Shown: positions 12,875 to 38,156 of the stretch, piece by piece
How the letters are laid out: each line of letters starts with the position of its first letter
Numbering within the stretch: the first letter of the stretch is position 1
Assembly: GCA_964036045.1 (NCBI GenBank)
Contig: OZ038386.1
Location: forward strand, 13,493,613-13,557,612
DNA length: 64,000 nucleotides
Source of the DNA: Eutreptiella sp. 'Long Island Sound 2002'
Taxonomy: Eukaryota; Euglenozoa; Euglenophyceae; Eutreptiales; Eutreptiaceae
Direction: 5' to 3'
Position numbers and translations under genes: made by a program
The notes under the pieces: model-generated
Database searches by the model: none
The model's input: the letters and a program-made list of their open reading frames with translations, nothing else
Told to the model about the DNA's origin: nothing

Positions 12875-13091
12875 CCCCCCCCCCCCGTGTCCAACGAACA
12901 CTACCCGTTCGAACCGTATTTTTTGTGTACCTAATTAATTTGGTACATAATTAGGTACGAGACATCAGAATTGAGGTTTCAGGCCAAAGGTGCGGGGAAA
13001 TGAGGGGCTGTTGCAATGTATGTTGCAGAAAACTCTAAAGCAGGGTGTGGGGAAGTGGTGTCCCTCAACTATAGGACCTCTATTGCCCACT

Positions 13092-13262
13092 ATGACTGAC
13101 TCCCTACTGGCACCTGGCCGTGAGGTGCTGTACAAGCGGTACCACACCGGCGAGCTTGTACCAGCCACAATTCTTGGGCCTTCTGATGACGGTGATGACT
13201 TTGTCCGGCTGAAGTACAGCCGAAATGGGCGCGACTATGAAAACCCATCCGCCCCTCTCTAG
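13092..13262 (+). CDS. Small Tudor-like domain ORF (copy T1)
   Basis: The 56-residue frame contains PGREVLYKRYHTGELVPAT then ILGPSDDGDDFVRLKYSRNG. This is a compact beta-barrel-like pattern: PG-x-x-V-x-Y, then V-x-A-T-(I/V)-(L/V)-G-P-S, then F-x-x-(I/L)-(R/K)-Y. The same pattern recurs at 39941-40387 and 47363-47683. It resembles Tudor/agenet-type modules that bind modified histone tails. That role is inferred and no aromatic-cage residues were verified. The frame stops with TAG, but the next codons in the same frame lead into a WW-like motif, so the stop may be a lesion or lie in an intron. It sits inside the C12/G12 element. Confidence 0.5.
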   Translation: MTDSLLAPGREVLYKRYHTGELVPATILGPSDDGDDFVRLKYSRNGRDYENPSAPL

Positions 13263-13496
13263 TTCCATCTGCGCTCCCCTTCACCGATGTCATCAACTTC
13301 ATCGGAGGAGACCCCGCAGCCCACGTCTCGCGGTCGCCCCACCTCCCCACCATCACACTCTTCGCTTCCACTTGGTTGGGAGCAACGCCGAACCCCCGAT
13401 GGACGTGTGTCCTTTTTATTGGACCACCAAATGGTACGCCATATGCACAAGCATGTGACAAGCCCGGATTCAACGGCACTTTCAAAGGGGAGCTAG
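13263..13496 (+). pseudogene. WW-like continuation of the element's ORF
   Basis: In the same frame as the Tudor-like ORF, past its TAG, a Ser/Pro-rich linker leads to LPLGWEQRRTPDGRVSFLLD. This resembles the first half of a WW domain (L-P-x-G-W-E-x-R...G-R-x-(Y/F)-(Y/F)...H). The second conserved tryptophan is not seen. Another frame, 13376-13594, stays open to KEVAN with a basic GRTRKQG segment. Introns or frameshifts are therefore likely. The segment is part of the transposon cargo. Confidence 0.35.
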
Positions 13497-13594
13497 AGGA
13501 GGAGTATGCCATGTGGGCGGAGGAAAACATCATGGGCCGAACCAGAAAACAGGGCCCGGTACCTCAGCCCTCGCGTAAAGAGGTTGCAAACTAG

Positions 13595-13885
13595 GTTGTG
13601 CGTGCTTTTGCGGCCATTACGGATGATGCCATTCGTGAGGCATGCCGCACCGCGTATTTTCCGAGTGGTTTGAAGTTGTCCCAATTGGAGGACACAGAAT
13701 TTTTCAAGAAGCATGATCCTGAGTCCGACTCTGATGATGGGTCACAAACTGACACGGATGACTCAGGTGACTCCGATGATAGTAGTGGTGTTGATGACTC
13801 TGATAGTGACGATAGTGACACTACCTGTTCGAACCGTATTTTTTGTGTACATAATTATTCGTTGGACACGGGGGGGGGGGGGTAG
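13595..13885 (+). CDS. Acidic C-terminal ORF of the same element
   Basis: This open frame has no ATG at its start; it follows AACTAG, which could be a splice acceptor. It encodes a helical-looking segment (ITDDAIREACRTAYF) and then a long Asp/Ser tail with many DSD and DDS repeats. It runs into the element's right terminal module. Acidic tails beside Tudor-like modules are common in chromatin proteins, but no function can be assigned. It is plausibly the last exon of the gene that includes the Tudor-like and WW-like pieces. Confidence 0.35.
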   Translation, partial: VVRAFAAITDDAIREACRTAYFPSGLKLSQLEDTEFFKKHDPESDSDDGSQTDTDDSGDSDDSSGVDDSDSDDSDTTCSNRIFCVHNYSLDTGGGG

Positions 13886-14480
13886 AGTTTTTGCCTTACC
13901 TACAGCTTGGGCCAGTGCCTTTGCCCGTGCCGTCTTTTCTGCAGGGGTGCTTGAAAGCATACTCCGTGGTCTGAAGGTTTAGGGGGGGGGAATCCCCCCC
14001 CCCCGGCCTGAACACAGGTTGTACCACATGCCGGTTTGGCACAACGCGCGCCTCACTACCGAATTGTTGCCAACCTACCACTGCCCAGCTTTGGTGAAGC
14101 GGGGCGTGCTGTGTTGGGGAGATTTGGTGGACGGGGCCGCTATTCCCCTCCAGTTTTGGGAACTGCTGGCCCCCACTTGGCAGCCGGTGTACTTGAAGAG
14201 GGTGGAGGAGTTGCAGGCTGCCTTCCGGCTGCCGATGTCTTACGGGGGACCGGAATTGGGGCTGCTTTATATGCAGCACAAACGCCACCATGCGGCGCAC
14301 AGCCACCTGAAATGTGGCGTGCTTTTGAGAGGCTGTACCTCCCAAAATGGGACAAAGATTTCATTCGGCAGTGTCTTTGGAACGGTTCTGCTGGTGGGAA
14401 CGAAGATGGAGAGAATGGGGGAGAAGCTATGTCCACTGGACAGTAGGTTAGAAAATCCCGAGCACGTGTTTCAGCAGTGA
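13885..14480 (+). pseudogene. Probable non-LTR reverse transcriptase remnant, right part
   Basis: The frame continues from the left part for about 30 codons to a TGA near 13974, then comes an imperfect G8/C10 inverted pair (about 13982-14004). After it, a second frame from 14019 contains MPVWHNARLTTELLP and WGDLVDGAAIP. A (P-x-x)-W-H-N followed by W-x-D-L is typical of the region after the RT core in L1/RTE-type LINEs. Interrupted frames and missing domains mark it as a relic. The identification is moderate and depends on two short motifs. Confidence 0.45.
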
Positions 14481-15024
14481 TTCTTCAATACGTTCATGGC
14501 AGACACAGTGCGTCGCGCCTTTCGGCTAGTGTCAGGAGACTCATGAAATGTGGAGCCCAGCGTGCTGTTGCGCGACCACCCCCTTCTATCGTTAACCTCC
14601 ACACAGGGGCTAATCCTCTGGGTGGGGTTGAAGGTACAGTGGAGTGGTGGAGTACAGCAGATGAATGTAGGGCCACCGCACAGGGCGGGCGGGCAACAAA
14701 GCAGAGGGGAAGGAAGCACTGTGACTATTTCTCTGCAACCCCGCAGCCAATGGCAGCTTTTGTGGACAGAATATCAGGGCGCTGGGTGGGCACCTTCTTA
14801 CCGAGGCACCAGGGTCATGTAGACTAGAGCAGTAGGCACACATGTAGTGCCCGTGGATTTGCAATGGACATCATCAATGTAATTGCGCTGGCCACCAACT
14901 GCACTAGGCAGTGCGGCACTATTGCTGCAAGAGCACCGACACGCAGCTCACCCGGTGCAGATACGTACGCCCCCACAGGCAAAGCGCCCACAACCAATGG
15001 GGTTCACAACAGGAGACCTAGCCC
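14481..15024. other. Gene-less stretch, nothing recognised
   Basis: Short overlapping open frames on both strands, no motifs, no repeat structure. Confidence 0.4.
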
Positions 15025-15791
15025 GGGGGGGGGGCGACTCCGCGGCTCCTAGGACGCCAACTACCCCCCCCCCCCCCCTAGGGGTCTCCGGCCAACAGTT
15101 AGTTGCCAAAGGTGTTGCCCTCAGGCGTCCATGGGCACCAAAGGCGCCCGACGCTCCATGAACACCAAAGGTGCCCTAAGGAAAATTTTGTCCACTTTGC
15201 ACCCCAACACTATCCTTAAACCCAACCTTGACTCTAACGGCCATCCCCAACCCTCAGCCTACTCGTAACCCTACACCTACACCCAACCCTAACCCTAGCC
15301 CTAACCCTAGCCCTAGCTCCCACCCTAGGCTAGGGGCAAAGTGAGTGTTGGGGTCCAAAATGGAGCAAGGATGTGGCAAAAGCAGCCATGAACAAAATTT
15401 GGGAGATCTTGTTCAGCTCAATCAACATGGCTGGCATGGCCAAACTAGCTGGCTGCAAAGGTTAGGGTTAGGTTTATGGTGATGGTATGGTTAGAGGGAG
15501 GGCAAGGGGAGGTAAGGGGAGCTTGTGCCTCCCCTCCCCCCCCAACACCCCAAATGGCCCCGCTTGGACACCCCCCCCCCCGCCACCCCGAATTGCCCCA
15601 CTTGGACCCCCCCCCCCAACCGACCCTCCTGGAGCCCCCCCCCCCCGCCCCTCCTATCCCCCCCCCCCTTCGCCCTCCCTAAATCCCCCCTCCAATGCCC
15701 CCCCCCCCCCCCAAGGGGCCTCCGACTAGCAGTTAGTTGGGGGGTGGGTAGTTGGCGTCCAGAACCGAGGGGTCGCCCCCCCCCCCCCCCC
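15025..15791. mobile_element. G-run/C-run-capped element containing telomere-like sequence
   Basis: The left end has 10 G then CGACTCC; the right end is the inverted counterpart, GGGGTCG then 16 C. A perfect 15-bp inverted match GGACGCCAACTACCC lies at 15052-15066, with its complement at 15746-15760. A second inverted match, GTTAGTTG, lies beside it. The interior includes degenerate CCCTAA repeats and C-rich spacer. No coding content. Confidence 0.68.
15243..15330. repeat. Degenerate telomere-like CCCTAA repeats
   Basis: Units of CCCTAACCCTAGCC run for about 80 bp within a capped element. This is interstitial, flanked by ordinary sequence on both sides, so it is not a chromosome end. Confidence 0.7.
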
Positions 15792-16271
15792 ATGAGACCA
15801 AGGAGACAGAGGAGGGTCAGCCATGTCACGGCTCACCAACTTCAGGCCAGCAACATGATGACCCGCCTATTCACCGCCCCGCTCCCTTCATAGGAACCTG
15901 TATCAGTGAGGCTGATGTGCTAACTCACAACTTCCGAAGACGTCCATATGCCACATTACAGGCTCCATGTACAAATGCTGCAAGTTGTATAATAGTCCCA
16001 CACCTCCCTAGAAACACCCCCCAACATGATCTAAAATTTGGTGCCCTTTCAAGAAAGCCTTCTCAAGTATTGGCCGTATTTCCACACATTTTGTTTGCGG
16101 TTGGCTGGGGGTTGATGATGGAGCATTGCGTCAACCCATATTTTAGTGTTCGCCAAGTGTACGCCAAGGGGGGGAGCGTTAGCGCGCTGGGCATCTTTTT
16201 TGACCCTTGCCCCACCGGTGACCTTTTTGGGGGGTGCACTAAGCGCATTGCGCGTGCAGTGCAACTATTTG

Positions 16272-17040
16272 GGGGGAGCGTTAGCGCGCCGGGCATCTTT
16301 TTTGACCCGTACCCCACCGGTGACCCTATAGGGGGTGCACTAAGCGCAGTGAGCGCGCAGTACAACTATTTGGACGTCTAGCCGTCCTAGAACCCCATAC
16401 TTTGTCATACTATGGGCATTATTGTTGTTTGACAACGGGTATTTTGATGCTTCTTTCACATTCGGGATATGGTATATTTGGATTCTCACCCGGTTTCACC
16501 AATTTTGTTCCATTTTTTGCTCGTTTCCACCACATCCACTCCTTACTAGGTTGATTTCTCCCCACCATGGGGACCCCAGGAAAGCAGGGGTAATGTAGCC
16601 ATATTGATTTCTCCCCACCATGGGGACCCCGAGAAGGCAGGGGTGATGTAGCCATATTGATTTCTCCCCACCATGGGGACCCCGAGAAGGCAGGGTTGAT
16701 GTAGCGAATACTGAGTTTGCGCTTCGTTCTTGTGACGTGAGGCAGAAACGCCATCCAAACCGCTTGCGGCTTTGGGACTCATTACTATAGCGAAATCTAT
16801 GGGAAAGGTAAAGGCAAAGTACCGTTTGTTAAGTACAATACAAATGACATTTGGAGTTGTTGAATTCACAGCTATTGTCTAATTATGCAACGTGCTTTGT
16901 AGGGAAGGTGCGCAGTCCATCATGGTCCATTTGGGGGGCTTTCTCCATCAAAGGGTAAATCTCGGGCTGAAGTCGGGATAGTTAATAGAAAGGTAGCGCG
17001 CCGAGTGCGCGCCGGGTGCGCGCCGGGCAAACATTCCCCC
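16272..17040. mobile_element. GGGGGA-terminated element, inner copy, TSD TTG
   Basis: This 769-bp copy begins GGGGGAGCGTTAGCGCGC and ends GCGCCGGGCAAACATTCCCCC. It has TTG on both sides (16269-16271 and 17041-17043). The uninterrupted site CTATTTGGACGTC is present in the third copy near 32108 and in the inner copy itself, so this is a self-into-self insertion with a known empty site. It carries a three-unit 53-bp minisatellite (16553-16711). Iteron-like GCGCGCCGAGTGCGCGCC sequence lies next to the right end. Confidence 0.85.
16553..16711 (+). repeat. 53-bp minisatellite, three copies
   Basis: Units start GATTTCTCCCCACCATGGGG at 16553, 16606 and 16659. They are related to the larger array at 3427-4865 (GGGGACCCCGAGAAGGCAGG and TGATGTAGCC are shared). 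Confidence 0.85.
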
Positions 17041-17794
17041 TTGGACGTCTAGCCATCCTAGAACCCCATACTTTGTGATACTATGGTCATTGTGCCATTC
17101 ATTGGAACAAAGAATGGCACTTTGGCAGCCCGCCAACAATCTTACAATGACGTGCACGGGTGGTATAGGGCACATATTGAGCAACTGTTTGCTCGCTTGT
17201 GACATTGGGGCTTGGTTAGGAACATCTGGTGTGGCGGCCCCAGTGAGTTGCACCAGTCAGTCGGTATTTTGTTGCATTTTACGCAATTTTGCATTCGCAA
17301 GCAGGTGCATCGGCCCCCCTATGGACCATGGGAGCATGTCCCGCCTCATGTTTGGACTGACAAAAGCAACTCAGCCAGCAACTCAGATGAGGCAGAGGAT
17401 GAGGCAGAAATGTGTGTGTTGTGTTGTCAGAAGCGTTCCACCATCACAGTTTGTGGTAGCATTATTGTGCTAAATGTATTGACACCCACACTTGTGGGAC
17501 CAATGTTGTTTGTTAAGTACAATACAAATGACATTTGGAGTTGTTGAATTCACAGCTATTGCCTTCTTGCAATGTACTTTGGAGGGAAGGTGTGCAGTCC
17601 AACGTGGTCTACTTGGGGGGCTTCTCCATGAGAGGGTAAATCTAGGGCTAAAGTCGGGATACTTAATAGAAAAGTAGCGCGCCGAGTGCGCGCCGGGCAA
17701 ACACTCCCCCAGGAACCCCTCTGCCCGGCCCATTTTGTGCTTTTGTGTTCCATGCTGATTGTATAATTATGGTCCAAGGCCTAGAAATACCCAC

Positions 17795-18175
17795 GACCGG
17801 GACCTTGCTGGGACACCATTCCAAAATATTGGAAAATATGGGAAAATGGAGGAAAATGGGTGAAAATGTGTCATTTGTGGAAAACTGAGTGGAAAAATGG
17901 TGATAAGCCACCCCCCGAAAGGTGGAAAATGGTGGTTTTTCAGTGCTGATGGGACACAGGGAGTGGGTATACTGGGCGATGGCCGGAGGAAAAATGGGGG
18001 GAAATGGCGAAGAGATTTTCCCCATATCTTTCCCCAATTTTTCCCGAGTCTCCACATTTTTTCCCATTTTCCCCCATTTTACCAACATCTTTTCCCCATT
18101 TCCCCCCATTCCCCCCTTTTCCCATTCCCCCCCGTTCCCCCCATTTTTCCTATTTCCCCATTTTTCGTCAGCCTA
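17795..18175. repeat. GGAAAATGG / CCATTTTCCCC low-complexity block
   Basis: Degenerate GGAAAATGG repeats pass into CCCCATTTTTCCC repeats, making a weak inverted arrangement. A similar block lies at 26790-27045. No gene. Confidence 0.55.
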
Positions 18176-18414
18176 CATGGGCACTTAATGCTGGATTCCA
18201 CAGTCGAAGACATGTGCCCTGTCAGGAATGGGTTATCCAGAAAAGTCTGCCCATGTCAGGGTTTTTGGAGTGTTTATCCTCATGGCCTTGTAGTGAGGGT
18301 TTTTGTTTTTGAAGGCTCACCCAACAACAAATACACCATGCTATTCTGAATTAGCTGATCAACAAAGACCTAGAGATTGGCTTGCACCCTCTTGTTTTTA
18401 CAAAGATTTGACAC

Positions 18415-18505
18415 TAAAATTGGACTGCTCTGATCCCTGTTTCCGAGAGCTCTCTCGAGTACCATCTGGTAAGAGGGCTTTGCCAGCTTACCCAAGTCTG
18501 AACTA
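18415..18505 (+). repeat. Dispersed ~75-bp repeat, copy 2
   Basis: Contains GGACTGCTCTGATCCCTG, TCTCTCGAGTACCATCTGG and AAGAGGGCTTTGCCAGCTT. It is close to the copy at 38215-38290 and more distant from 11540-11625. Confidence 0.65.
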
Positions 18506-18578
18506 AAAAAAAGAGAGTTTGACACTAAAAACTTCGCCACTGCGATCAAACGTGGCATGCCTTGCCTCCACCTTTCAG

Positions 18579-19227
18579 CACGGGAACGCCGGAAGAGACA
18601 TGAGACGTGAGTCCAGCCTCAACATTAGCGAGAGGATTCCAAAGCTGAAGGTTCAGGCATCTCTGCTACTAGCAACTCAAACGCCTAAGCCCCTGACGGG
18701 TAGAGGGGAAGGCAAGAAGAACCCGGACCTCTTTGCCACCAATTACTTCCCAGCTCATCGCCACAACAAGGGTATAACTAAGCCATACGAGCTGCTACGG
18801 CCGGCCAAACAGGCTGCCCCACCGGCACCGGCGAGTGCAGCGAGCAATGCGACGGCGGATGTGCGCCCGGATCATGACTGGACAAGGAGCCTAGAGCAAA
18901 TAGATAACAGTCCCAAAAGGGGCCTTAATCCGGAGTCGTCCCGGCTCCCGCTGAACGAGTCAACATTGCTGTGCCCTAACATGCCAGAGGGTCCAGACAG
19001 TGACACACAAGCCGGCACACCACGGTCGGACTCTTCCTTTGTAGAAGTCTTTTCGTCGTCGGAATCATGGGAGTCCACGCCACAGCGCAGGATGCAACGA
19101 CGTGGGCTCACCTTGGCAAGACGAAGAACTAGTGGTACGCCGGCCAGACGGCCGAGGGAGCGGGCGGATGCCAACTCAGGAACAACGACCCCGGCATTGC
19201 TTCTAAGGGCACCGTATATTCGGATAG
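18579..19227 (+). CDS. Putative host gene X, exon A (Ser/Pro/Arg-rich protein)
   Basis: I model a host gene from four segments whose splice sites and phases agree; this is the first that I can see. The exon starts after CCTCCACCTTTCAG and ends at ATAG|GTCAGC, leaving one base for the next exon. It encodes 216 residues of low-complexity sequence: NPDLFATNYFPAHRHNKG, an Ala/Pro stretch, then SDSSFVEVFSSSESWESTP and a basic run ending ARRPRERA. No family is recognised, and the content suggests a disordered, possibly nuclear or cytoskeletal protein. The start codon is not certain: an in-frame ATG lies 60 nt upstream of the acceptor and another 21 nt inside. Spliced length over the four exons is about 423 residues. 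Confidence 0.5.
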
Positions 19228-20887
19228 GTCAGCATGCTCCACACTCATTTGCGTGGCTCTAGGGGGGAACACCCGTAGTTGGGGAGAGGGGGTGGTACGG
19301 GAGGCGGCGGCAGCCGCAAACGTGGGCGCGAGTTCAACTGGTAGCAGGGTATGTTGCAAGGGATCCTAAGTATCATCCTCTCCATCTCCGGATGTGCATG
19401 TAGGCGACCAGTCGTTCATCGGAGACCATCTCTTAGAGTGCCAACTGGATGTGACTGCTGGCGACCACCGCATGATGTGGGCCACGGGCGATAGGTGGGG
19501 GGGCGAGGGGCCCCGTCTTAGCAACTGTTGAATCCCCTTAGGTGCGCAGTTGTCTCTTGCGACTTGCACACTTCCCTTTGCATGCCCCACATGTTGCCGA
19601 GGCGCCACCGGTACATCCGACGAAAGCGGCGGTGGGCAGGTTGTGCCCCTAGTAGGACTGCATATGTGCCCTGGCATGCGTGCAATACCCGGGGGTACAT
19701 CCCGGCGGGCGGCAGCCAGCGCATGCGTCGGCATGGCAGGGTCTCGTGGCGGTGTCTCAGGCATCGGGATGCATGCTAATCGCACGGGGCATGAGCAGCC
19801 CCGTGCGATACCCAGCCCCAGTGCCTGCCATATGGTGCTTGACCCTGTGACCCTTGGTTTTGGGCCTAGTGACCTCGCTGAATTTGAAGTCCTAGTGGTG
19901 GAGACAGGGATACGCCATGGGGGACTAACCTCGTCGGGGTTATGTGCAGACGACCCGCCTACACGGTGGGTTCGCAGCTGTGTTGAGCTGCCGGGTTATG
20001 CTAGGGGCTGGGTTCCTGAGCCCTCCCCCACGCACTCCACAATGCTATACACTATGATGCAAGTCGACAGGTCTCCGGAGGCCCAGGTGGCTCATGGCCG
20101 AGCGTCCACAGAGCACACATAAATTGCCCTTCGGATGGAGCCTCTTGTCATACAGGGTCCAGCCAGTCTAATTACCTCAATGGCCTGTCGCTGACGTCAG
20201 GTTCGGTGTAGAGATGGTGATGATCCCATGGACTGTTGCTGCTCAAAATGAATTCCTTCCTTGCCTCCATCTTTCAGCTCTGCTTTACGCTCCGGTTAGG
20301 TCTCACCAAAATGATGGATCCGCTACTACCCACGTGCGTGGCGGTGGTCCAAAAGTGGACCATGCGTGGCACAAGTGGCCAAACAGTCCAAAACTGCTTC
20401 TTTACACTGCTATGTTCAGGGGCTTCCAGGCTGCAGTGGATGTTTGCCTGCAAGGTGATACCTTGTGGATATCCACATGTCTGGGTATTTGCATTGCGCA
20501 CTGTGCGTCACGCCCGCGGCACATGTAGTGTACAAGGGACTGTCTTGGAAAATCACACCCTGCATCATAGCTTTTTGCCTGTGAAGAGACACGGGTCTGT
20601 CAAGACGTCAGAGCACATATCTCATGCACACATGGTGAGATTCAAAACCCCGGAGTAGCCACTCGACCAGCGCCGCGAGAAACGCCACCTCCGAAACGGC
20701 TTCCTTTCTAAATACCCTAAGGTCGATGGCTCGTACCCCATATTTGACAGAGAGGGTTGGAAACACGCCAAGTTGCGTCCTAGCGTGTCTGTGAATCGTC
20801 CTCACATATTGGACGCATGCCCTAGAATATCTCGCACCACTGTGGCCTCATATTCTCATCCTTGGCAGCCTCCACTCCTCTGTGCAG
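19228..20887. other. Modelled intron 1 of gene X
   Basis: About 1.7 kb without a recognisable element end. A 190-codon frame at 19550-20122 has no motifs and is not supported as a gene. It contains ordinary sequence and no long homopolymer runs. Confidence 0.4.
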
Positions 20888-21036
20888 CATTTATAATGCC
20901 ACGTCGGACAATTCCTCCCCCGGCGCCAGAAGAATTCCACAGCCAACGCCGCACAGGCTACGCCTACGATGTGCGATACCAAGAGTCATATGACCCACAG
21001 AAGGTTCACACCCGGAGAATGGTAGAGCCCCCGGCG
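20888..21036 (+). CDS. Putative host gene X, exon B
   Basis: A strong acceptor (CCACTCCTCTGTGCAG) precedes the exon, and a strong donor (GCG|GTATGT) follows it. The 149-nt segment needs one base from the previous exon, which exon A supplies. It encodes MPRRTIPPPAPEEFHSQRR and then TGYAYDVRYQESYDPQKVHT, a Pro- and Tyr-rich stretch with protein-like codon use. If exon A is not real, the ATG at 20896 could start the protein. The phase at the end is 0. Confidence 0.55.
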
Positions 21037-21496
21037 GTATGTCGTGCAGGACCAGGGCTGCGGTAGCGTGCGTTCGTTTCCCTGAAAGGGCTTGGTGGTT
21101 GCACCAAAAGGTCAAGGGAGGGGCAGGCAACCAAAGGGGAATCGATGCCCCGCAGCATCATATTGTGGCGGACAATGCTGACTGGCCTCGGGCCATTGCT
21201 CAGTGGCAAAGGGTAAGAGGCCAAATAAAAATTTGTGTACCTAAAATCGGCCTCCAATTCCGGGCCCCTTTAATCAGTTTCATTTTTTTTCCTGAGGAAA
21301 GCCTTTTTGATGTGGGGGGATGGAGGAGGGGGTTCGGCTGGGGGTTGGCCTAGCACTGAATGACCCCACACCCCCTGGGTGGTCCTTACACAATGGTTTG
21401 ACTGGAATCAATTTGCTCAGAGGTCCTGAACTGTCATGCAGTTACATTTCATCTCCATCAAAGGTGTCAGAGGGCGCCACAGGTCTACGTGTGGGT

Positions 21497-21955
21497 ACAT
21501 GCAGGTTACTGTGACCTACTAGTATGAGGCCTTTGGGCTTTCCTGCCCGGCTCGTCCCGACTCACCTGCACCCAGATTACACCTCCAGAGCGTGCTCTTT
21601 TGCGAACCAAAGGTTTCTGTGGTGTATCAGGTGAGGCAACAGCCTGTTGCGTGAATTTGTAGGCAGACGTGGTGGGTGCCTGTTGACAAAAAGGGGTGGC
21701 AGGCAGCACACGCACTGTCCAAAACGGACGAAATTCTCAAATATGTCGCCAGTACAGCATGCAGACCCATGGTGTTCCAAATAGCCCTTTTCAAGGGTTT
21801 CCTGCAGCAGGATCGGAGAAAATTGAAGAAATATGCGCCTGTCCACAAACAGGGCGATGTTTGTCCAAATTGGTGTCCCAGCACTGCCTGAAAAAGGCAA
21901 CGCAAATGATGACGATGATTCAGAATAAACGTGATGGAATGAGGGCGAGAGATAT
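21497..21955. mobile_element. Rearranged relic of the DUF7869-like transposon
   Basis: From 21505 to about 21797 the minus strand matches the transposase N-terminus (SAYKFTQQAVASPDTPQKPL) and its 5' leader. From about 21798 the PLUS strand matches the C-terminus (KLKKYAPVHKQGDVCPN) and the 3' end. Only the right terminus, CGAGAGATAT, survives. The two ends of the gene have therefore been joined in opposite orientation with the middle lost. It lies in modelled intron 2 of gene X and retains an empty site for the insertion seen at 42328. Confidence 0.75.
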
Positions 21956-25064: not shown

Positions 25065-25078
25065 TCCATTTCTCACAG

Positions 25079-25644: not shown

Positions 25645-25742
<98 letters not shown>

Positions 25743-28595: not shown

Positions 28596-30023
28596 TAACT
28601 CCCTCTGTGACTGCATGTTCGTGTGCTTCGTCGTGTCGTGGTGGTGCTGTCTTGTGGCATGCCATATCTGAGTGGTGTTGTATGCCGTGGTGTGGGCTTT
28701 TTTGGGGTTGTGTGTAATGTGGTATTCCATTTATTCCATGTTGTGTGGTGCCCCAGTGCTGTCAGCGTTTCACAATGACGAAGCGAATGGTCTGACGCGT
28801 TGCCTCGAGGTTTTGCCCTGATACTGTGGGCCGCCGCCGTCAGTGGCCGGCACTGCCACAAGGTGGCGCACGGCCTGGCAGCCACGCACATGACGCAGTG
28901 ACACAAAACATGAAGGTTTATTCGATCCCGCACATGCTGAGCGACAGAGGCACAGAGGTGAATAGCAATGCATTCCCGTGTTGTGTGTGCTGCATGCTCT
29001 GAACAAGGAGGAGGGAGGAGCTGCCCTGAAATGGTCCTGTCCGCATCCCCAATCATGACTGTCGGCAGAATGCACAAGACAACCGCATGCATTTGCTGCG
29101 TTGGCAGTATGAAGCAGGTCGATTGGAAGAGGAAATGTTTTCGGAATGTGTCATACCCTGCCATCATGCCCTGTTCCCCCCCGCAGTATTCAGCAGATCG
29201 GAAGCCCCTGGCGCTGTGTAAGCACGCCATTTGGTGCTGTATTATGAAACATTGCTTGGATTGAAAATTTTGGCCGGAACCGGCCAAAAAAAAAAAGCAT
29301 GATGACAAAGAGCCACTGGCAAGAGGTTGGCCGGGGTGGATTTTTGTGCTCTCTCTTTGGCCAATTCCAACCAAACGTGGTCCCAGGAGAAGCAGACGGT
29401 ACTCCAGTGGTTGCAACAGACACATGCGGCGTTAGACGATGGAAGGCTTTCCAGATGCCAGGAGTCTCGGCACCCAGCAACAAAGTGCAATGGACAATGA
29501 AGTACCATGAAGCATGAAGTATAGCTGCAACCATCAACAAACACGCAGGTTCTCTGGACTAGTCCAGGCAGTGAGTCACCATGCGACTCCAAAGAACGTA
29601 AAGGACAGAAATTATCGAACGATATTGATCGCAGGCAAAGGGTGAAAGTATGGACCTCGTTGAAACAGAAGACCAAAGTCTACTGTCAAGCAGGCATTGG
29701 GCAGAAAGAATGCATGCCTGATGTCAATTTGGCGCCAAAACAAGGGCTCTGTGCAACATCTTTCACTGACGGGAGGGACAACAGGCTGTCCATTTCCAGC
29801 CAAAGCGCAGATTTCACCGTATTTGTTTGGCCGGAACTGGCCAAACCACTGCTGTTTCTTGCTCATGGATTTGCAGCAATAAGTACCAGAGTGTCACAGC
29901 GAAAAAACTCTCCGCGTTTTTCAGATCAATGGGATGCATGTTATGAACCAAATCTGGTTCACAACACGCCTGACGGTCCCCTGCCAGCAGAGTAGACTAC
30001 CGCTGAGAACCCCTGCACAACAT
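28596..30023. other. Gene-less stretch between two related elements
   Basis: GGCCGGAACTGGCCAAA-like phrases recur near 29272-29290, 29359 and 29830-29846, suggesting diverged short repeats. The long minus-strand frame at 28595-29425 has no motif and I do not call it a gene. Confidence 0.35.
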
Positions 30024-30769
30024 GGGGGAGTATCAGACACGGTGTGCACGCAGTGCACATGCGGAGTTGTTGTGTGGACTGTGTCAGCTAATTTGGAGGC
30101 TACGTGCTGCCGGCGCCGATGCTTTTGCCCAAAACTGTACCTGACACTGCAGAAGGAATTTGGGCAGTGTAGCCACATGCAAAATCCAAAAAAAAATCGG
30201 GAGTGTTGTGCAATAATTTGTCATTCTTCAGCCTGTTGCTGCACTGGTTGCATGTGAGCTTGCCCAAGGGGGCCCTCACACCCTGCCATAACTCTCCCCC
30301 CAGCAACTTTCACCAAGAGACAGCACCCCCTCCTCTTTGTCCTAGCTACGCCCTTGTCCAAGCTACAGTAGGCGTAGGGACCATATTAATTTGGTACCTA
30401 ATTTGATTCGGTATAAATGTAGTGCAGCCACATAATACATGGGTTTGGTGACAAATTCGCCAGTTACATAGAGTCATGGACACATTTGTTGTGAGTGTTT
30501 GCCCAGTTGAACCCACATAGCTCTGATTTTGGGGATATTTGTGCACCATATCCCCGTTTCTTGCATCAGCTCACCATGCCGGTAGTTTTATGTGTCGCGC
30601 GCAAGCTACGCCCTTGTCCAAGCTACAGTTGGCGTAGGGACCGTATTTGGGACTTTTGCGTAGCTAGGACAAAGGGGGGGGGGGGTGCAAGGGCTTCAAA
30701 GGCAGACCATTTCCTGGAGAAGTTGTTTAAATACCTGATGCGGTGCGAGCACACTGTGTGAACTCCCTC
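30024..30769. mobile_element. GGGGGAGTATC-family element, interrupted, TSD CAT
   Basis: Begins GGGGGAGTATCAGACACGG and ends GTGTGAACTCCCTC, with CAT on both sides (30021-30023 and 30770-30772). The interior parallels 28243-28595, but at ACCAAGAGACAG it is broken by a 360-bp C/G-capped element (30326-30685) and then resumes with GGGCTTCAAAGGCAGACC. The intact copy supplies the empty site. Confidence 0.85.
30326..30685. mobile_element. C/G-capped element (family A) nested in a GGGGGAGTATC element
   Basis: The left end is CCCCCTCCTCTTTGTCCTAG then CTACGC; the right end is GCGTAGCTAGGACAAA then G12. The inverted repeat is about 26 bp. Just inside both ends, in direct orientation, is GCTACGCC-CTTGTCCAA-GCTACAGTWGGCGTAGGGACC (30345-30384 and 30604-30642). 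It contains the TTGTCCAA box and a GCTACGCC/GGCGTAG stem. No coding content. The target duplication is unclear, though the empty site is known from 28507-28540. Confidence 0.8.
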
Positions 30770-30789
30770 CATGAAGCATTTTTTTGTAA

Positions 30790-31149
30790 CCCCCCCCCCC
30801 CTTTTCCAAGCAACACCTATCTCCAAGCAACACTAGGCGTTGGTTCCGTCAATTTTTGCACCTTTGATTTTGGCGGTGCGTTTTCTATTCGTTCTAATGT
30901 GTGCCATGTATGCTTTCTGACACCTTGGTTTTGAGAAGCACGAAGTTCATATTTTGTGTCAAGGCAGCTCTGTTGGCCAAGAGGGCATTTGTAGCATGTT
31001 TTACCTCTTGGTTTTCATAATAGTACATCATGTCTACACGTGTATCACACAAGTTGCGGCGCGTAAGCAATACCCTTGTCCAAGCAACACCAGGTGTTGG
31101 TTGCGTCAATTTTTGGTCATTTACTGTTGCTTGGACAAGGGGGGGGGGG
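30790..31149. mobile_element. C12/G11-capped element (family B)
   Basis: Starts with 12 C then TTTTCCAAGCAACA and ends TGTTGCTTGGACAAG then G. A module CTTGTCCAAGCAACACCAGG, TGTTGGTTGCG, TCAATTTTTGG lies at 31073-31117. Its direct counterpart is at 30812-30856 (CTCCAAGCAACACTAGG, CGTTGGTTCCG, TCAATTTTTG). The hairpin stem is CAACACC/GGTGTTG. No coding content. No target duplication is visible. Confidence 0.75.
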
Positions 31150-31615
31150 CTTCATGTTTACCAAGAGAAAGGTACTTTGCGACGACATGCCATGGAACAC
31201 CTGAGACAGAAGTTGTATGCACCTCCTGCTGTGCTTGTGTGCGCCTTCCCATCGCTGACCAAGAACTACCACTGGGAACCTATGGGAATGCCATGCACGC
31301 AGTGCGCACGCAGTGCGAAGTTCTGGATGTCGGCAAATAATCGAACCCTAGTTTCGGCCCCTTTTCACAAGTTTTTGATTCCGTACCAGGTTTTTTTTTT
31401 TAGCTTCCGAAGCATTTAGGATGTGACATATTTGAATTGTCAACCATTTTTGCCCATTTTCAACCATTTCCCCCTATTTCCTCCCCCGCATGGGCGTTAG
31501 CGCACGGGGTGCGCGCCGGGCGTCTTTGAGGGAGCGTTATTTTGGGCCTTCAACCTTCTGGTGCTATTGAGGAAACCGGGCCAATTATCCAATCCACGCT
31601 TTGTTGTGTGGCCAA

Positions 31616-31837
31616 GTGGGCTTTCCCTTGCTGCTGAACAAAGCACTGAAGTGGGGTCAAGAATCATGGATCCGGGGTTTGTACAAGTTGGACTTTGTGG
31701 AAGAAGGGCATGTTCAGAGTGGGCATGTGGGCTTTCCCTTGCCACTGAACAAAGCATTGAAGTGGGGTGAAGAAGCATGGATTTTGGGTTTGTCCCAATT
31801 GGACTTTATGGAAGAAGGACATGTTCAGAGTGGGCAA
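31616..31837 (+). repeat. Two in-frame copies of a 111-bp (37-residue) repeat
   Basis: Two tandem copies, 31616-31726 and 31727-31837, encode NKALKWGQESWIRGLYKLDF and NKALKWGEEAWILGLSQLDF, then EEGHVQSG in each. The frame is open across both and continues to 31918. A unit length divisible by three and protein-like conservation suggest a remnant of a repeat protein. No start codon or splice sites are clear. Confidence 0.6.
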
Positions 31838-32004
31838 CTTGAAGGCAGTTTCGTTGTTCTCATGTGGGCTTTGCTGCTTCGCCGTGCTACTAGACAAGTG
31901 ATAAGTATTCTTGGGTGAGTATCCCAGCCTCTGCGTGCGCCGTATGCACGCAGTGCGCACGCAGTGCAAGAACTTGGCCTATGTCCAAAACGAAAAAGTA
32001 CATT

Positions 32005-33203
32005 GGGGGAGCGTTAGCGCACCGGGCACATGCCGGGCATCTTTTTTGACCCGTGCCCCACCGGTGACCTTTTAGGGGGTGCATTGAGCGCAGTGCGCCC
32101 GCAGTGCAACTATTTGGACGTCTAGCCGTCCTAGAACCCCATACTTTGTGATACTATGGGCATTATTGTTGTTTGAAAAAGGGTATTTTGATGGTTCTTT
32201 CACATTTTCATAGACTCCATGCCCATTAGGTCCATTGGTGGGATATGGAGTGCCGACCTGTGGAATCCTAAGTATGTGTCGCATGTTTATAAGGTGACTG
32301 TTGCCGTTGATATGTTGGCATTATTATATGGATTTGCCCTTTGGGACGTCGGCTGATGTTTTCATTTGGGATGGGTACCCCGTTCATCTCTTTTATGCAC
32401 AATCGCATATCATTAGGCAAAGATGTGCATGTTGGACCCTTCCCTTCCCCCCCCTCCAGTTCCAAAGGGCGGTTCAGCAAGTGATTGGCAGAGTACCTTG
32501 AAACCAAGCTCATTGAGCAACTCATAAAATTCTTGAACCCCCCATGCAATTTCCAGTGTGCTGATGAATTCAATTGAGCTGTACTTTGGTTCGTTCGGGT
32601 TCGTCGCGATGTTGCGCAGAACCGTGGCAAGATATTGTTTGGTGTTGGCGCTTGTCTTGGAATCGTACCGGCTAAGCACCGTGAACAAGTCAGCCACAAC
32701 GCATCCCACATACTTCTGTGAGGATGCATGTGGGCAGTAGAGGTACCAGCAGCAGCAGGGGGCTATGCACTGGGGCAACATCAAGAGGCTTTGCACTGTG
32801 GCACCAGTGGGTGGCTGAGCACTGGTGGTGGCAGTAGGGACCATATATTGGGGCAGCAGCAGTGGCTGGGCATCGGGGCAGCAGCATGGGGTTGTAAACT
32901 AGGGGCCACGGACAAAGTGAATGAGGATCTGATTGTCGAGGGCCTGGGTACATGGTTGTCGGTTTGTTGTTTCATTACGTACAGCCTTGTATGGACCTTC
33001 TTGTACCCGAGGTGATTTCTTTGATTTGGAGTTGTTGAATTCACAGCTATTGCCTTATTATGCAACGTGCTTTGTCGGAAAGGTGTGCAATCCAACGTGG
33101 TCTACTTGGGGGGCTTCTCCATGAGAGGGTAAATCTGGGGTTGAAGTCGGGATACTTAATAGAAAAGTAGCGCGCCGAGTGCGTGCCGGGCAAACATTCC
33201 CCC
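32005..33203. mobile_element. GGGGGA-terminated element, third copy, TSD ATT
   Basis: Begins GGGGGAGCGTTAGCGCACC and ends GCGTGCCGGGCAAACATTCCCCC, with ATT on both sides (32002-32004 and 33204-33206). It shares GGACGTCTAGCCGTCCTAG, the ACTTTGTGATACTATGG block and GAATTCACAGCTATTG with the copies at 16.2-17.7 kb. It is 1199 bp, about 430 bp longer than the 769-bp copies, the extra lying in the middle. It preserves the empty site for the inner insertion at 16272. No coding sequence is recognised. Confidence 0.85.
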
Positions 33204-33206
33204 ATT

Positions 33207-33468
33207 ACAGAAGGCAACGACGAAGCACCGCCTGGACTTTCAAACAATTTTCACCAAATGCAGCTGGTGCCATGAGCACGGCTCTACCATCAGTGAAAGG
33301 TGGTGTCTGCGTTTACCGGCTCCTCCCTAGAGACGGCTTCTACATTCAGAACCATAGGATTTGCTGGAGAAGGCGCCAAGTCATGATGACTTGGCGTTTC
33401 AATGCTCGGGGCGGAGTGTCCTTCCGCTGTGCACTGTTCCCCATCAGCGTATCCTTTTGCATGATAAA
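33207..33468. other. Short spacer between two elements
   Basis: About 260 bp with no recognisable feature. It contains a short inverted repeat CCAAGTCATGATGACTTGG near 33378. Confidence 0.4.
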
Positions 33469-34128
33469 GGGGGCGTATTGCGCGCTGTGCACAAAGTTTG
33501 TACAGGACCACACCCAAGCTGCATAGTGGTGCCTAGTACCAGTAACAATGAGCGTTGTTATGCATTTATATGAGCTGCTTGCATGCTTTGCCCTCATGTT
33601 TTGCATCCTTTCCTATAGTTTTGTGGTATCTACCAAGAATTTGGATTCTGATTACGAACTATGGCTTGCGATGAGGAAGAAATGGAGAGGTTGCGACAAA
33701 CTAAGGTGCGGAAGAAGTGGAAGGAGGCTGAAAAGGTGGCATCACAATCGGCAACAAAGTCCCAAACTCCTAGTGTCTCGGAATTATTGTGGACACTGTG
33801 GTGAGGTTGTTGAGACAGCTGTGAAAAAGGTTCGCGGATATCTCAATATGGTGGTGGACGAGGTTCGAAGGTCTAACCGCTTGAACCATTATAATCATAG
33901 CCCACGTGACCCACTTCACTGACTCTATGCCCATTAGCTCGATGGGTGGTGGCCTTGGGTGGTTTGGAGGGTGGGGGTTGGGTGAAACATGAGGCTATCC
34001 AACATTGTGGGGGTGTAGTATGGTCTGTACAGGCAAGAATATTTCCAACCGTAGCAAAAACCCCCAATTTATTCCTGTCATGTGCGCGTTGTGCCCGCGC
34101 TGTGCGCACGCTGTGCACACACGCCCCC
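33469..34128. mobile_element. GGGGGCGT-family element, TSD AAA
   Basis: Begins GGGGGCGTATTGCGCGCTG and ends GCTGTGCACACACGCCCCC. AAA flanks both ends (33466-33468 and 34129-34131). The right end has three 11-bp iterons (GCGTTGTGCCC, GCGCTGTGCGC, ACGCTGTGCAC) and the left end about one, in the same orientation. It is the same family as 1089-1590. No coding content. Confidence 0.84.
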
Positions 34129-34384
34129 AAATTGGGTTCACGAGGTGTCCTTGGTCGGGCAGTCTGTTCGCATGTCCATCAGTGCTCACACGCAAGGGGA
34201 CAGTTCTTCACCTGATCTGCAGCGTTCTAGCATCAAGCAGACGCAACTCTTCCAGCTGCTTCAGGTGTGAGACATGTCCTGACATACAGTCTGTTGATCC
34301 GACCATTGCACTCCCCATCCGATGGCTTTGCTTGCCCATGTGACCCCCCCACCGCCGTGTGTTCTCCCCCCTTGTGCACTGTGC

Positions 34385-34432
34385 ACTCTTGGTGTGAGTG
34401 TGAGTGTGAGTGTGAGTGTGAGTGTGAGTGTG

Positions 34433-34479
<47 letters not shown>

Positions 34480-34583
34480 AGACCGCGGAGGGCCGGCGGG
34501 CACCATGGGGATGTGCCGCGGGGGCGCCCTACCGGGGGACCGCATCTCCTCCTCCTCCTCCTGTGTGTGAGTGTGTGAGTGTG

Positions 34584-34629
<46 letters not shown>

Positions 34630-34645
34630 GGTGGGTGGGTGTGGG
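34385..34645 (+). repeat. (GAGTGT)n and (GT)n microsatellites
   Basis: (GAGTGT)n then (GT)n lie at 34393-34478, and (GTGAGT)/(GT)/(GGGT) at 34563-34642, separated by GC-rich spacer. Open frames through them are artefacts. Confidence 0.9.
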
Positions 34646-35005
34646 TGACCTGCACACTGTCCTCTGAATGCTCCGCAAGTAGCCTCAAAAGGATGGAGCC
34701 GCAGGCATCAGGGGCGGACACAAGTGAAAACTGGCCACATAAAAGAAGAGCCCTTGCCATCCTGGCGCCTGGCATCAAAATGGCTGCAAATGGAGGAGTG
34801 ATGACCTTTTGGTGATAACAATTATACAATTTCAGTTGCCTCCCCCCCCAAAAAAAAAATCCCCACGAATATTGCCACGACCGGACTACATTCAGGGCCG
34901 AAGGTGACAAGAGCCACTGTCCCCCCTGTGTGAACCACACCACAACTTCCATACATCACACTTCACTCGAAACTTCACTGTCCCAGTATTTTCTTCGTTC
35001 ATACA

Positions 35006-35437
35006 ATGAGCTCAACCCGACCGCCCCCGCCCCCTAAGTCCATGTCTGAGGACGTCCGCCGGGTGCTGTTCCCTCAAAAGAAGCCTGCGCCGCCGACGCG
35101 CAAGCGGCCGCTCGAAGGCAGCGTCCCGGAAGGGTGGTCCTCGACGGACGTGCAGCGGCTAAAGGAGGCACAACGCGCAGTGGACCCACTGGCGCCCAAC
35201 TACTGGAATATCGTGGGCGCCAAAGTCGGCAAATCCAAAGCCGAGTGCCTCGAGTTCATGGAGAGCTCCTTCAGTACCCCCGAAAAGCGACCGCGCCGCC
35301 TGAACGCCAAGGCCGAGTTCTCGAGCTTCGGCCGACTGGTCTTGAAATCGGGGAGTTCGCGACCCAAAGTCATCGCGTCCATGAGCCTCATGGAGCGGCA
35401 AACACACCGCGACGACCCGTTTCAGAGAGCGAAGACG
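35006..35437 (+). CDS. SANT/Myb-like domain protein, exon 1
   Basis: The first 144 residues of a predicted 199-residue protein. After a Pro-rich basic N-terminus (KKPAPPTRKRPLEG), residues 41-90 form a SANT-like helix bundle. W44 in PEGWSSTDVQRLKEA, W67 in NYWNIVGAKVG and C81 in KSKAECLEFM match the W..L..A...NYW..VA..VG..S..EC pattern. That spacing is closest to SANT domains of the M18BP1/KNL2 centromere-licensing type, which is a tentative comparison; a generic chromatin SANT protein is equally possible. GC-rich third positions distinguish it from the surrounding repeats. The exon ends at ACG|GTGGGG in phase 0. Without splicing, the frame would stop after eight more codons. Confidence 0.65.
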
Positions 35438-35792
35438 GTGGGGGTCCCCGCGGCATTTTGAGGCCGCAGAAGTTCTTGTCCAAGTGTCTGGTCTCTCTCG
35501 GATGCGCCGACTGCAGGCGTTCGCGCATCCCCTGCGGATGACGGGCCCGTCTACCGAGTCGGAGCACGCGCGACTTTGTCGGGGCTGGCCCTCGGCGGCT
35601 CCGCGGTCCCATGCGGCACTGTGCACCGCGGGTGGAGTGTGATCCATTCGTGCCCCTGGCAGCGGCCCGACGTGCTGTGCCGCTGTGGCCCCCGCTGCTG
35701 TTACTGTGTGATGTCGCCAGGGGGTGCCATAAGGACGCTCACCCTTTTTTTTTTTTTTACTATGGCATCCACTCTCTGATGTTTGGTGGCTA

Positions 35793-36112
35793 CCCACCAA
35801 CCGCCATCGGTTACACACCAACCGCCATCGATTACACACCAACCGCCATCGGTTACCCACCAACCGCCATCGGTTACCCAGTTACCCACCAACCGCCATC
35901 GGTTACCCACCAACCGCCATCGGTTACCCACCAACCGCCATCGGTTACCCACCAACCGCCATCGGTTACACACCAACCGCCATCGGTTACCCACCAACTG
36001 CCATCAGTCACACACCAATGGCCATCGGTTACCCACCAACCGCCATCGGTTACACACCAACCGCCATCGGTTACCCACCAACCGCCATCGGTTACCCACC
36101 GGCCGCCATCGT
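35793..36112 (+). repeat. 21-bp intronic minisatellite
   Basis: About 14 copies of CCAACCGCCATCGGTTACCC-like units lie inside the intron of the SANT gene. Each unit contains ACCGCCATCGGT, with partial dyad symmetry (ACCG..CGGT). There are no spacers, so it is not CRISPR-like. Confidence 0.92.
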
Positions 36113-36159
36113 AGGGCGTATTGGACACTCCGAGTTTTTTTGTTTTTTTTTCATTACAG

Positions 36160-36327
36160 ACCCCCTGGATGTCGCGTGCCAGCCCGCAGTCTATCCGCAG
36201 TTGTGCTCTGTTCGAGGGAACGCACCGTGGGCGCGCTGTGCAAAGCTCTTTGAAGGGGATTGTCTGCAGCAGCAACAGCAGCAGCAGCACCACCACCACC
36301 ACCACCACCACCACCAACAATGTTTGA
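36160..36327 (+). CDS. SANT/Myb-like domain protein, exon 2
   Basis: Follows a T-rich tract ending TTTTTTTTTCATTACAG and joins exon 1 in phase 0. It encodes TPWMSRASPQSIRSCALFEG and THRGRAVQSSLKGIV, a basic Ser-rich stretch, then a poly-Ser/poly-Thr run from CAG/CAC repeats and a TGA. The acceptor is strong and the phase fits, which supports the model. The alternative frame over the same repeat encodes poly-Gln/poly-His. The function of this tail is unknown. Confidence 0.55.
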   Translation, partial: TPWMSRASPQSIRSCALFEGTHRGRAVQSSLKGIVCSSNSSSSTTTTTTTTTNNV

Positions 36328-37755
36328 CAACAGCAACAACGAAAAATTCAGTGGACTCGCAGCCTTTCTACCCCTTTCACTGCTGTGGGGGGGGTGTTCC
36401 ATACAGGCTGGTGGTTAACCCTCGCTCCAGAAATACGAAATGGGCCCAAACTAAAAACCACTCCCAAAAATATGAATCCCCACCAAGACCGCCACCAGCT
36501 GTAGCAAGTTAAGAACTCGCTCTATAATTTTTTGGGGGGGTGGGGGGTTAGTGCAACCGGTGTCCACTTTGTTTGGCACGTTTTGGTTGCTCAGCTTTGG
36601 GTGTACAAGGGCGCACAACTCTGGCTCAGAATGGAATGCTGGACCCGCTACGCACCATTGCAGAGTACTGTCCCTGTGGCGCCAAGTGCCCTTGGCACCC
36701 GCCGAGGCGTCACATGGAGTCATGGGCCTGGTACTGGAATTCCCATGACTAGAAGTTCGTGGGGTGCTCTTCACCACATTTTATGCCGGAAGTGTGCGAA
36801 AGGGCCCAGCGGATCCGGATCACCAAGAGTCTCCAATCGGGAGTCCGACAACGGTATTTGTGATTCAGAAGCATGCGGGTATCATCGCGGGACATCCAAG
36901 TGCCTTCCCAGCCTGGAGCAGTAGAGCCCTCCAACACTGGTGGTGGCAGGCAGTGAGGGTCCGGGCCGGGAGTTCAGTTGGACCGGATCATTGATGATTC
37001 ATAATAAAAAGTTGGTTGATCTAAAAGCGCCATCATTTTTTCTGAAACTTGGTGTTCAGAGTCACCTCCAGGTCATTGTGGGGGCTTTTGAGGATTCCGG
37101 TCAATGGAGCTCCTTTTTATTTGGAGGGGGGGGGGGGCGTCCCGGCCGGGGGCTCTATCACCCCCACCGCCTCATCCCCTTCCCCCCGCAAGCGACAATC
37201 CAGGGTGCTTTTGGTGAACGTACCATAACGATTCAAAACCCCCCTGCGCTGTGCGCACATCGTCGAACCCCCGCCCTCCAGTCTATCGTCCTTCAGAGTT
37301 TGGCATCAAATTACGTAGCAGTGGGCTGCGTCTCGCATCTTCGTTTGAGCAGCGGGGCCATAGCAGGGGCCTGCACATGCAGAGGCCTGAGATGCAGACA
37401 TGCCTGACCACCTTCATGTACCTGCCCCGCTCCGATGCATCCTTGCTCTGCCCGTAGGGCGATGCTCCCCGCATCCCATGCGGCGCAGTCCTTTGCTTTG
37501 GGCCCCCCATCCCCCCCCAAAGCCCCCTCTCTTCCCCAAGTCCCCACCTGTAGGACAGCCTGGACGGGCTTTGCTGGCAGGATTTTGGGGTCAACGGACG
37601 GCGGGTACCAGTCAACCGAGGGTCCTTGACTGTCAACCAACGGCAAAGTAATTGCCCTAACAATTCTTTTTCGCAGCAGAACGAATTTTGTTGGAGCAAA
37701 GCGTTTTGCAGTTCCCGCTGCATCTTCTGGTTTCAGATTTAGCTCGCCCTACCTA
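36328..37755. other. Region downstream of the SANT gene
   Basis: A frame around 36590-36990, broken by one stop, reads GVLFTTFYAGSVRKGPADPD and later WWWQAVRVRAG. It looks like a decayed coding sequence of unknown type. G runs lie near 36530 and 37125. No gene can be named. Confidence 0.3.
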
Positions 37756-38156
37756 CCCCCCCCCCCCCCCCCTTGCTAACACGGGCTTGTCCAAACACGG
37801 AGACCCCGTGTTTCCGCACTTTTGGTCCTTTTTTTGAACCGTCGTTTTTGCGGTTCTGATCCAATAGAGAACGTGGTTTATAGCTTTGTGCAGGATGCAG
37901 GAAGGGTCAATATGGGTGACAAAGTGTTGCTACAGCTATAATTCCATGTGCTCTTGTACTCTGGGGTGTATGCCGGTCTGTTGGACACTCTTTCATAGTC
38001 ATGAACGATTGGTTGGGCTATGCCTGCAACTTGTGTTCCGCATTACGTGCCGCGCGCTAACACGGGCTTGTCCAAACACGGGGACCCCGTGTTTCTGCAC
38101 TTTTGGTCCTGGAACCAGAACCTGGCCCGTGTTTGCGCAAGGGGGGGGGGGGGGGG
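37756..38156. mobile_element. C17/G16-capped element (family C)
   Basis: Left end: 17 C then TTGCTAACACGGGC. Right end: GCCCGTGTTTGCGCAA then 16 G. Just inside both ends, in direct orientation, is GCTAACACGGGCTTGTCCAA then ACACGGRGACCCCGTGTTTC and YGCACTTTTGGTCC (37775-37829 and 38056-38109). The right copy contains a perfect hairpin, AAACACGGGG-A-CCCCGTGTTT. No coding content, and no clear target duplication. Confidence 0.78.

What the first reader, a model, noticed from the sequence alone, without database searches (positions are those of the whole stretch)
12875..38156. C12/G12-capped elements with a covarying hairpin module repeated at both ends
Four elements (12875-13881, 30326-30685, 30790-31149, 37756-38156) carry near each end, in direct orientation, the same module: a TTGTCCAA or GTGTCCAA box, a hairpin, then CGYAnTTTTTGG-like text. 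The stems differ but keep pairing: CGAAC/GTTCG, GCTACGCC/GGCGTAG, CAACACC/GGTGTTG, AAACACGGGG/CCCCGTGTTT. The family-specific stem sequence is echoed in that family's own terminal inverted repeat (TAGCTACGC, GCAACA, AACACGGGC). Compensatory change plus a trailing T-run suggests a functional structure: a folded DNA end, a binding site, or a tiny RNA polymerase III transcript. I know of no described family with this layout.
Basis: partly seen in the sequence, partly recalled or inferred. Interest (0 to 1): 0.88.

Follow-up and report, generated by a model that had tools for sequence, protein, structure and literature searches.

The report
Euglena pogo-type transposons with C/G caps
These are short, high-copy jumping-gene derivatives in what looks like the Euglena genome; the matching 'hairpin' arms are most likely repeated docking sites for each family's own transposase rather than a folded structure, which points to a large and apparently unnamed branch of a known transposon superfamily.

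Summary
The layout is mostly real. E1, E3 and E4 are capped by C- and G-runs; E2's left cap is decayed. Direct repeats of 40-65 bp lie near both ends (80-96% identical), but E1's right module lacks the box and 5' stem arm. The host is probably Euglena (spliced-leader match). E1, E3 and E4 have many copies; E4 copies are 97-99% identical, with TA on both flanks in 13 of 28. Coding relatives of E1 are 2.7-3.0 kb capped elements with a WW domain, a Tc5-like helix-turn-helix and a DDE_1/mariner-like core. Of 18 transposase genes examined in several lineages, 15 are followed within 450 bp by a G-cap plus TA; two lineages carry the right ends of E2 and E4. Stem arms match within lineages (13 of 5040 permutations), but unpaired tips match the internal words at least as well (1 of 5040), and E3 stems mutate one-sidedly. 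I conclude: MITE-like derivatives of TA-inserting, pogo-type transposons, whose modules are family-specific transposase-binding sites. Binding is inferred; a structural or RNA role is not excluded. New variant of a known kind.

The parts
12875..13882 (+). E1: internally deleted, non-autonomous copy of a pogo-type transposon (C12 ... G13, TA on both sides)
   Evidence: coding relatives L077-L080 share its ends and flanking coding pieces
12875..12898 (+). E1 left cap, tip box GTGTCCAA (12887-12894) and start of the family word CGAA: terminal inverted repeat with 13858-13881
   Evidence: 24 nt, 100%
12895..12911 (+). E1 left stem CGAAC (12895-12899) / GTTCG (12907-12911), followed by AACCGTATTTTTT
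   Evidence: read
13092..13813 (+). E1 remnant of the transposase gene: start MTDSLLAPG..., WW remnant (by eye), tail ...PSRKEVAN*VVRAFAAITDDAIREACRTAYFPSG... and acidic stretch, with stop codons
   Evidence: matched to frames of relatives; the E1 pieces alone gave no Pfam transposase hit
13814..13882 (+). E1 right end: deletion junction at 13814-13817, right module without box or 5' arm (GTTCG at 13827-13831), tip TTCGTTGGACAC and G13
30326..30685 (+). E2: MITE-like element of the P0005-type transposase lineage; left cap decayed (CCCCCTCCTC), right cap G12
   Evidence: right module closely similar to the ends behind P0005-type genes L081, L082
30345..30377 (+). E2 left module: GCTACGCC (30345-30352), box TTGTCCAA (30354-30361), GGCGTAG (30371-30377)
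   Evidence: read
30605..30637 (+). E2 right module: GCTACGCC (30605-30612), box (30614-30621), GGCGTAG (30631-30637)
   Evidence: read
30790..31149 (+). E3: MITE-like element (C12 ... G11); coding parent not found
   Evidence: 40 scored matches, itself 100%, the other 39 at 88-94%
30802..30843 (+). E3 left: tip box TTTTCCAA (30802-30809), CAACACC, degenerate box ATCTCCAA (30819-30826), GGCGTTG (30837-30843)
   Evidence: family consensus CAACGCC/GGCGTTG
31076..31099 (+). E3 right module: box TTGTCCAA (31076-31083), CAACACC (31085-31091), GGTGTTG (31093-31099)
   Evidence: read
37756..38156 (+). E4: MITE-like element of a young family (C17 ... G16)
   Evidence: 40 scored matches, itself 100%, the other 39 at 97-99%
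37787..37813 (+). E4 left module: box TTGTCCAA (37787-37794), AAACACGG (37793-37800), CCGTGTTT (37806-37813)
   Evidence: read
38068..38094 (+). E4 right module: box (38068-38075), AAACACGG (38074-38081), CCGTGTTT (38087-38094)
   Evidence: same end, but for one base, behind transposase genes L083, L085
47782..47881 (+). Right end of a further lineage (GGGAGACCGTC ... GACCGTCTCCC, TTTGCAA, interrupted G-cap, then TA)
   Evidence: closely similar text behind transposase genes L088-L090

Best explanation
The elements are non-autonomous, MITE-like derivatives of a large group of pogo-type (Tc1/mariner-related, DDE_1) cut-and-paste transposons in a Euglena-like genome. The transposase has a WW domain, a Tc5/CENP-B-like helix-turn-helix region and a DDD catalytic core. 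Inferred mechanism: the transposase binds repeated 'box + family word X' sites. Each end has two of them in direct repeat, 16-17 bp apart where measured, followed by an inverted half-site X'; in right ends the outer box is a looser GCGCAA-type word (by eye), and there is an extra inverted tip copy. Transposase and X change together between lineages, which makes the X/X' arms covary like a hairpin. After synapsis the DDD core cuts at the outer edge of the C/G caps and inserts at TA, duplicating it. Shown: ends, TA flanks, copy number of three families, linkage of transposase genes to such ends, domain matches. Inferred: binding, dimer recognition, cutting place, and any role of the caps.
Confidence: 0.8

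Rival explanations
1. The hairpin itself is functional: the module extrudes as a DNA cruciform or folds as RNA, and selection keeps pairing, not the sequence.
For: Between lineages the arms pair beyond permutation (46 against a mean of 34.3; 13 of 5040). E4 and L096 carry perfect short-loop palindromes. In E1-lineage copy L095 both arms changed together (TGAAC/GTTCA) while the tip did not, although both are CpG-type changes in a copy with stop codons. In the right E3 stem a consensus A/C mismatch is made good by a single change in 7 of 27 copies.
Against: The same word is kept at tips that are not in the hairpin (1 of 5040). In 27 E3 copies, 15 of 189 left-stem cells are changed, 13 of them broken and none on both sides. 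In E1-lineage L094 and F6-lineage L087 one arm is changed alone. The pairing partner differs: arm upstream of the box in E2/E3, downstream possible in E1/E4.
Confidence: 0.13
2. The modules make tiny RNA polymerase III transcripts that end in the T-run.
For: E1 modules hold a B-box-like word GTTCGAACC followed by T6; most of the lineages have at least T4 in a module.
Against: No B-box in the other module texts tested; longest T-run 2 in E2-lineage L081 and in F5 L091. No Rfam match at gathering score in the window. The B-box-like word of E1 is made up of its own X'. No expression data were on hand.
Confidence: 0.03
3. The caps are not part of the element: insertion prefers existing C- or G-runs, or the runs are assembly noise.
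For: The genome is rich in C12/G12 (907,497 and 924,793 overlapping matches); run lengths vary from 6 (the script's minimum) to 20 in nearly identical E4 copies.
Against: In the copies and ends read here the order is C left, G right with TA outside, in MITE-like copies and behind 15 of 18 transposase genes; a target run would give the same base on both sides.
Confidence: 0.04

Closest known systems
pogo superfamily (IS630-Tc1-mariner group), as described in PMC7386202 (passages read)
   Same: TA duplication, terminal inverted repeats, 2.7-3.0 kb coding copies, Tc5-like HTH (just below cut-off), DDE_1 core, DD35D/DD37D
   Different: WW domain and acidic tail with a conserved C-terminal VWAK...GVWG...F...LYFTRD block, C/G-run caps, two direct box-X sites per end plus inverted half-site; not placed on a tree here; DDE_1 often below cut-off
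Tc1/mariner MITEs such as Stowaway (features recalled; a Stowaway paper stands in the listing)
   Same: short, high copy, TA duplication, inverted repeats, no intact gene
   Different: homopolymer caps and subterminal direct modules
Sleeping Beauty-type IR/DR ends (recalled)
   Same: repeated transposase-binding direct repeats within an end
   Different: here the inner module of the right end has the same orientation as that of the left end instead of being mirrored
TBE elements of ciliates (PMC7325037, passages read)
   Same: Tc1/mariner-group elements with special repetitive tips (telomere-like there); G-rich 3' ends here
   Different: here homopolymer C/G of 6-20; host telomere repeat not determined; TBE's extra genes not looked for

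Membership tests
pogo superfamily (features from PMC7386202) | TA (or TAA/TAAA) target duplication | tested here: met
   E4 copies both sides TA in 13 of 28, left 20 of 29, right 19 of 28; E3 both 3 of 13; coding copies L077, L079, L080 TA on both sides, L078 on the right only
pogo superfamily (features from PMC7386202) | terminal inverted repeats, total length 1.2-5.2 kb | tested here: met
   E1 repeat 24 nt at 100%; L077-L080 cap to cap 3039, 2937, 2851 and 2691 bases
pogo superfamily (features from PMC7386202) | transposase of 300-977 aa | tested here: met
   693-aa open frame in L099 and 634-aa relative P0008; the E1-lineage gene is split, probably by an intron
pogo superfamily (features from PMC7386202) | HTH DNA-binding motif (Tc5, psq, Brk or CENP-B type) | tested here: inconclusive
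   HTH_Tnp_Tc5 19.8 (L078), 22.1 (L079), 21.9 (P0001) and 14.0 bits (L099) against a cut-off of 22.2
pogo superfamily (features from PMC7386202) | DDE_1 catalytic domain | tested here: met
   L100 32.9 bits and relative P0043 47.5 bits, cut-off 22; L078, L099, L101, P0005, P0008, P0009, P0010 below the cut-off (15.1-20.7); none listed in L079, L102, L103, P0001-P0004, P0006, P0007, P0011
pogo superfamily (features from PMC7386202) | triad DD29-56D | tested here: met
   DD35D or DD37D counted in four relatives; first D read from the alignment
pogo superfamily (features from PMC7386202) | falls in the pogo clade of a transposase tree | not tested
   no tree built; profile comparison with five uncapped DDE_1 proteins of the same genome gave probability 54.6%, E 1.2e-4, and 5.0% with a shallower alignment
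MITE | short, no intact gene, high copy, ends shared with a coding element | tested here: met
   E2 and E4 right ends match L081/L082 and L083/L085; high copy shown for E4 and E3; E3 parent not found; E2 copy number not measured
TBE-like telomere-tipped elements | tips made of host telomere-like repeat | tested here: inconclusive
   tips are C/G homopolymer; the host telomere repeat was not looked for

The most novel reading that the evidence does not exclude
The C/G caps are a working part: strand-symmetric G-rich 3' ends that mark or protect the transposon tips (compare the telomere-like tips of ciliate TBE elements), so that this Euglena branch combines homopolymer ends with a swappable docking word X read by a fast-evolving DNA-binding domain. 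If so, an end code of fixed box, variable word and homopolymer cap could be predicted from the transposase sequence.
Probability: 0.12. Interest if true: 0.75.

Novelty: new variant of a known kind. Interest (0 to 1): 0.5.

Why it matters
The 2024 Euglena gracilis assembly paper states that 32.73% remained unclassified within its repeat elements (PMC11252322, passages read); families like these may account for some of that. Transposases and ends paired in several lineages make a natural set for asking how a transposase and its binding site change together. Euglenid nonconventional introns have been proposed to come from MITE-like insertions (PMC4770533, PMC6221363, passages read); here are concrete, partly young, high-copy MITE-like families in a Euglena-like genome against which that idea can be tested. 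I did not test that link.

Tried and rejected
Rejected: E1-E4 as unrelated families (shared box and caps; transposase relatives with the ends of E1, E2 and E4). E1 as a carrier of a host gene: its coding pieces match the transposase gene of longer capped copies. Parent among ordinary DDE_1 genes: 5 loci read (L069-L073) of 150 scored, no capped ends recognised by eye in the 4.8-5.8 kb read. L057 as autonomous E3: the extra DNA encodes an RNase H-like frame (by eye, no family search), so probably a nested insertion. First structure job (P0008, 7 sequences): pLDDT 43, not used. PDB sequence searches gave nothing relevant for the transposase. The rows 'left X2-X'' are not a real stem (my motif was misplaced) and are not counted. 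Of 30 E3 loci, L043, L046 and L052 were dropped as duplicates; L041 and L045 also share flanks, so at most 26 of the 27 rows are independent.

Not answered: genome search with E2, with the E1 tail protein, with the spliced-leader pattern, and with a capped-box pattern. So E2 copy number and a genome-wide count of capped tips are missing.
Full report
Host. The window is G000:C9:13493613-13557612 of a 2.28-Gb, 2205-contig genome. The E. gracilis spliced-leader sequence printed in PMC6242988 (passage read) matches window 1296-1321 with 1 mismatch; 100 shuffles gave none. I therefore take the host to be Euglena gracilis or a close relative; no tool names it.

Observation. E1-E4 exist at the stated places. 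Terminal inverted repeats and direct repeats of 40-65 bp are there. Corrections are listed in the observation check: E2's left cap is decayed, E1's right module is truncated, E3's left inner box is degenerate, and the T-run is not general.

Copies and insertion. E4: 40 of 2123 first-look candidates scored, itself 100%, the others 97-99% identical. E3: 40 of 1718, itself 100%, the others 88-94%. E1: 78 matches, 40 of 1516 candidates scored. E2 could not be searched. In E4 copies without the window's own, TA stands left in 20 of 29, right in 19 of 28, on both sides in 13 of 28; in E3 copies 13 of 23, 6 of 19 and 3 of 13; background before C6+ runs 16 of 160, a set that includes these elements. 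E4 caps run from 6 (the script's minimum) to 18 on the left and to 20 on the right.

Coding relatives. E1 matches pairs of pieces that in other places are separated by up to 1.6 kb. Four such places (L077-L080, 4 of those listed) are capped elements of 2691-3039 bases. L080 has a 295-aa frame with a WW domain (46 bits); L078 has a 510-aa frame with a Tc5-like HTH (19.8 bits, cut-off 22.2) and a weak DDE_1 match (15.1, cut-off 22). The gene seems to be interrupted between the two frames by a stretch of 83-base repeats, which relative P0008 lacks (by eye). E1 in the window has lost the middle of the gene and the first part of the right module.

Hairpin or binding site. With one end per lineage (seven lineages, E3 without a known transposase), stem complementarity within lineages sums to 46; 13 of 5040 permutations reach that. 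Identity between the tip and the internal words sums to 55; only 1 of 5040 (the true one) reaches it. In 27 E3 copies (30 loci less L043, L046 and L052; L041 and L045 are one more likely duplicate pair) the left stem has 15 changed cells of 189: 13 broken, 2 wobble, none changed on both sides. The right upstream stem has 18 changed cells: 7 broken, 11 still pairing, 7 of which make good a consensus A/C mismatch. Old copies drift freely, so this does not by itself exclude structure. Shared words at unpaired tips are what a DNA-binding protein would require.

Orientation. In L080 boxes point right at 14, 30 and 2616, and left at 2678 (element coordinates). Left and right inner modules thus have the same orientation, and the right end has an extra inverted tip. 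The distance from inner box to G-run is 60-64 in E1, E2, E3 and F6, 73 in E4 and L084, 54 in F5. Steps near ten bases would suit helical phasing; this is an inference from few lineages.

Literature. Nine searches were run and passages were read from PMC11252322, PMC12455990, PMC4770533, PMC6221363, PMC6242988, PMC7386202 and PMC7325037. In the listings I recognised no paper on C/G-capped or WW-bearing pogo-type elements, but only titles and starts of abstracts were seen there, and most subscription journals are not held; Repbase was not on hand. [quoted passage not shown]

Verdict. Known kind (TA-inserting DDE transposon and its MITE-like derivatives), new variant. I am confident about the class and less so about the role of the modules and caps.

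Noticed in passing
window 1296-1321: Euglena spliced-leader sequence with one mismatch in genomic DNA, just downstream of an open frame (621-1220); perhaps a retrocopied mRNA or an SL-related repeat.
   Followed up: partly
window 3547-4018: Another C/G-capped element with repeated ACTTATAA boxes between C-runs and inverted ends.
   Followed up: no
window 11866-12066: C12/G12-capped 201-bp element with TTATAATTCTG ends; the flanks share TCTGG, possibly a 5-bp duplication instead of TA.
   Followed up: no
window 7590-7662, 42692-42774, L068 2731-2796: A family whose end carries two C-runs about 57 bases apart with CATTTCTGAAA(T/C)GGCC and AGATTTCAAAAAGTA text.
   Followed up: no
window 59604-59701 and 60165-60863: Further fragments related to E3/E4 and ends with TTGCGCAAGC-type words next to C/G runs.
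   Followed up: no
L051 1879-3075: E2-type element with a P0005-like coding tail, carrying a second capped element (2333-2940) of another lineage nested inside.
   Followed up: partly
G000, listing: About 26 (counted by eye) of 150 scored DDE_1 matches lie in frames of exactly 650 aa with nearly equal scores: probably a young pogo-like lineage; the one read (L069) has no caps.
   Followed up: partly
window 7777-9831 (-) and 5541-6893 (+): 684-aa frame with a DUF7869-like match (24.2 bits, cut-off 26) and an uninterrupted kinesin motor frame.
   Followed up: no
L078 1350-1560: 83-base unit (CCAGAATTCAGCAACCTGGGTGTCGTGGGATGC...) present about 2.5 times at the probable intron of the E1-lineage transposase gene.
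   Followed up: no
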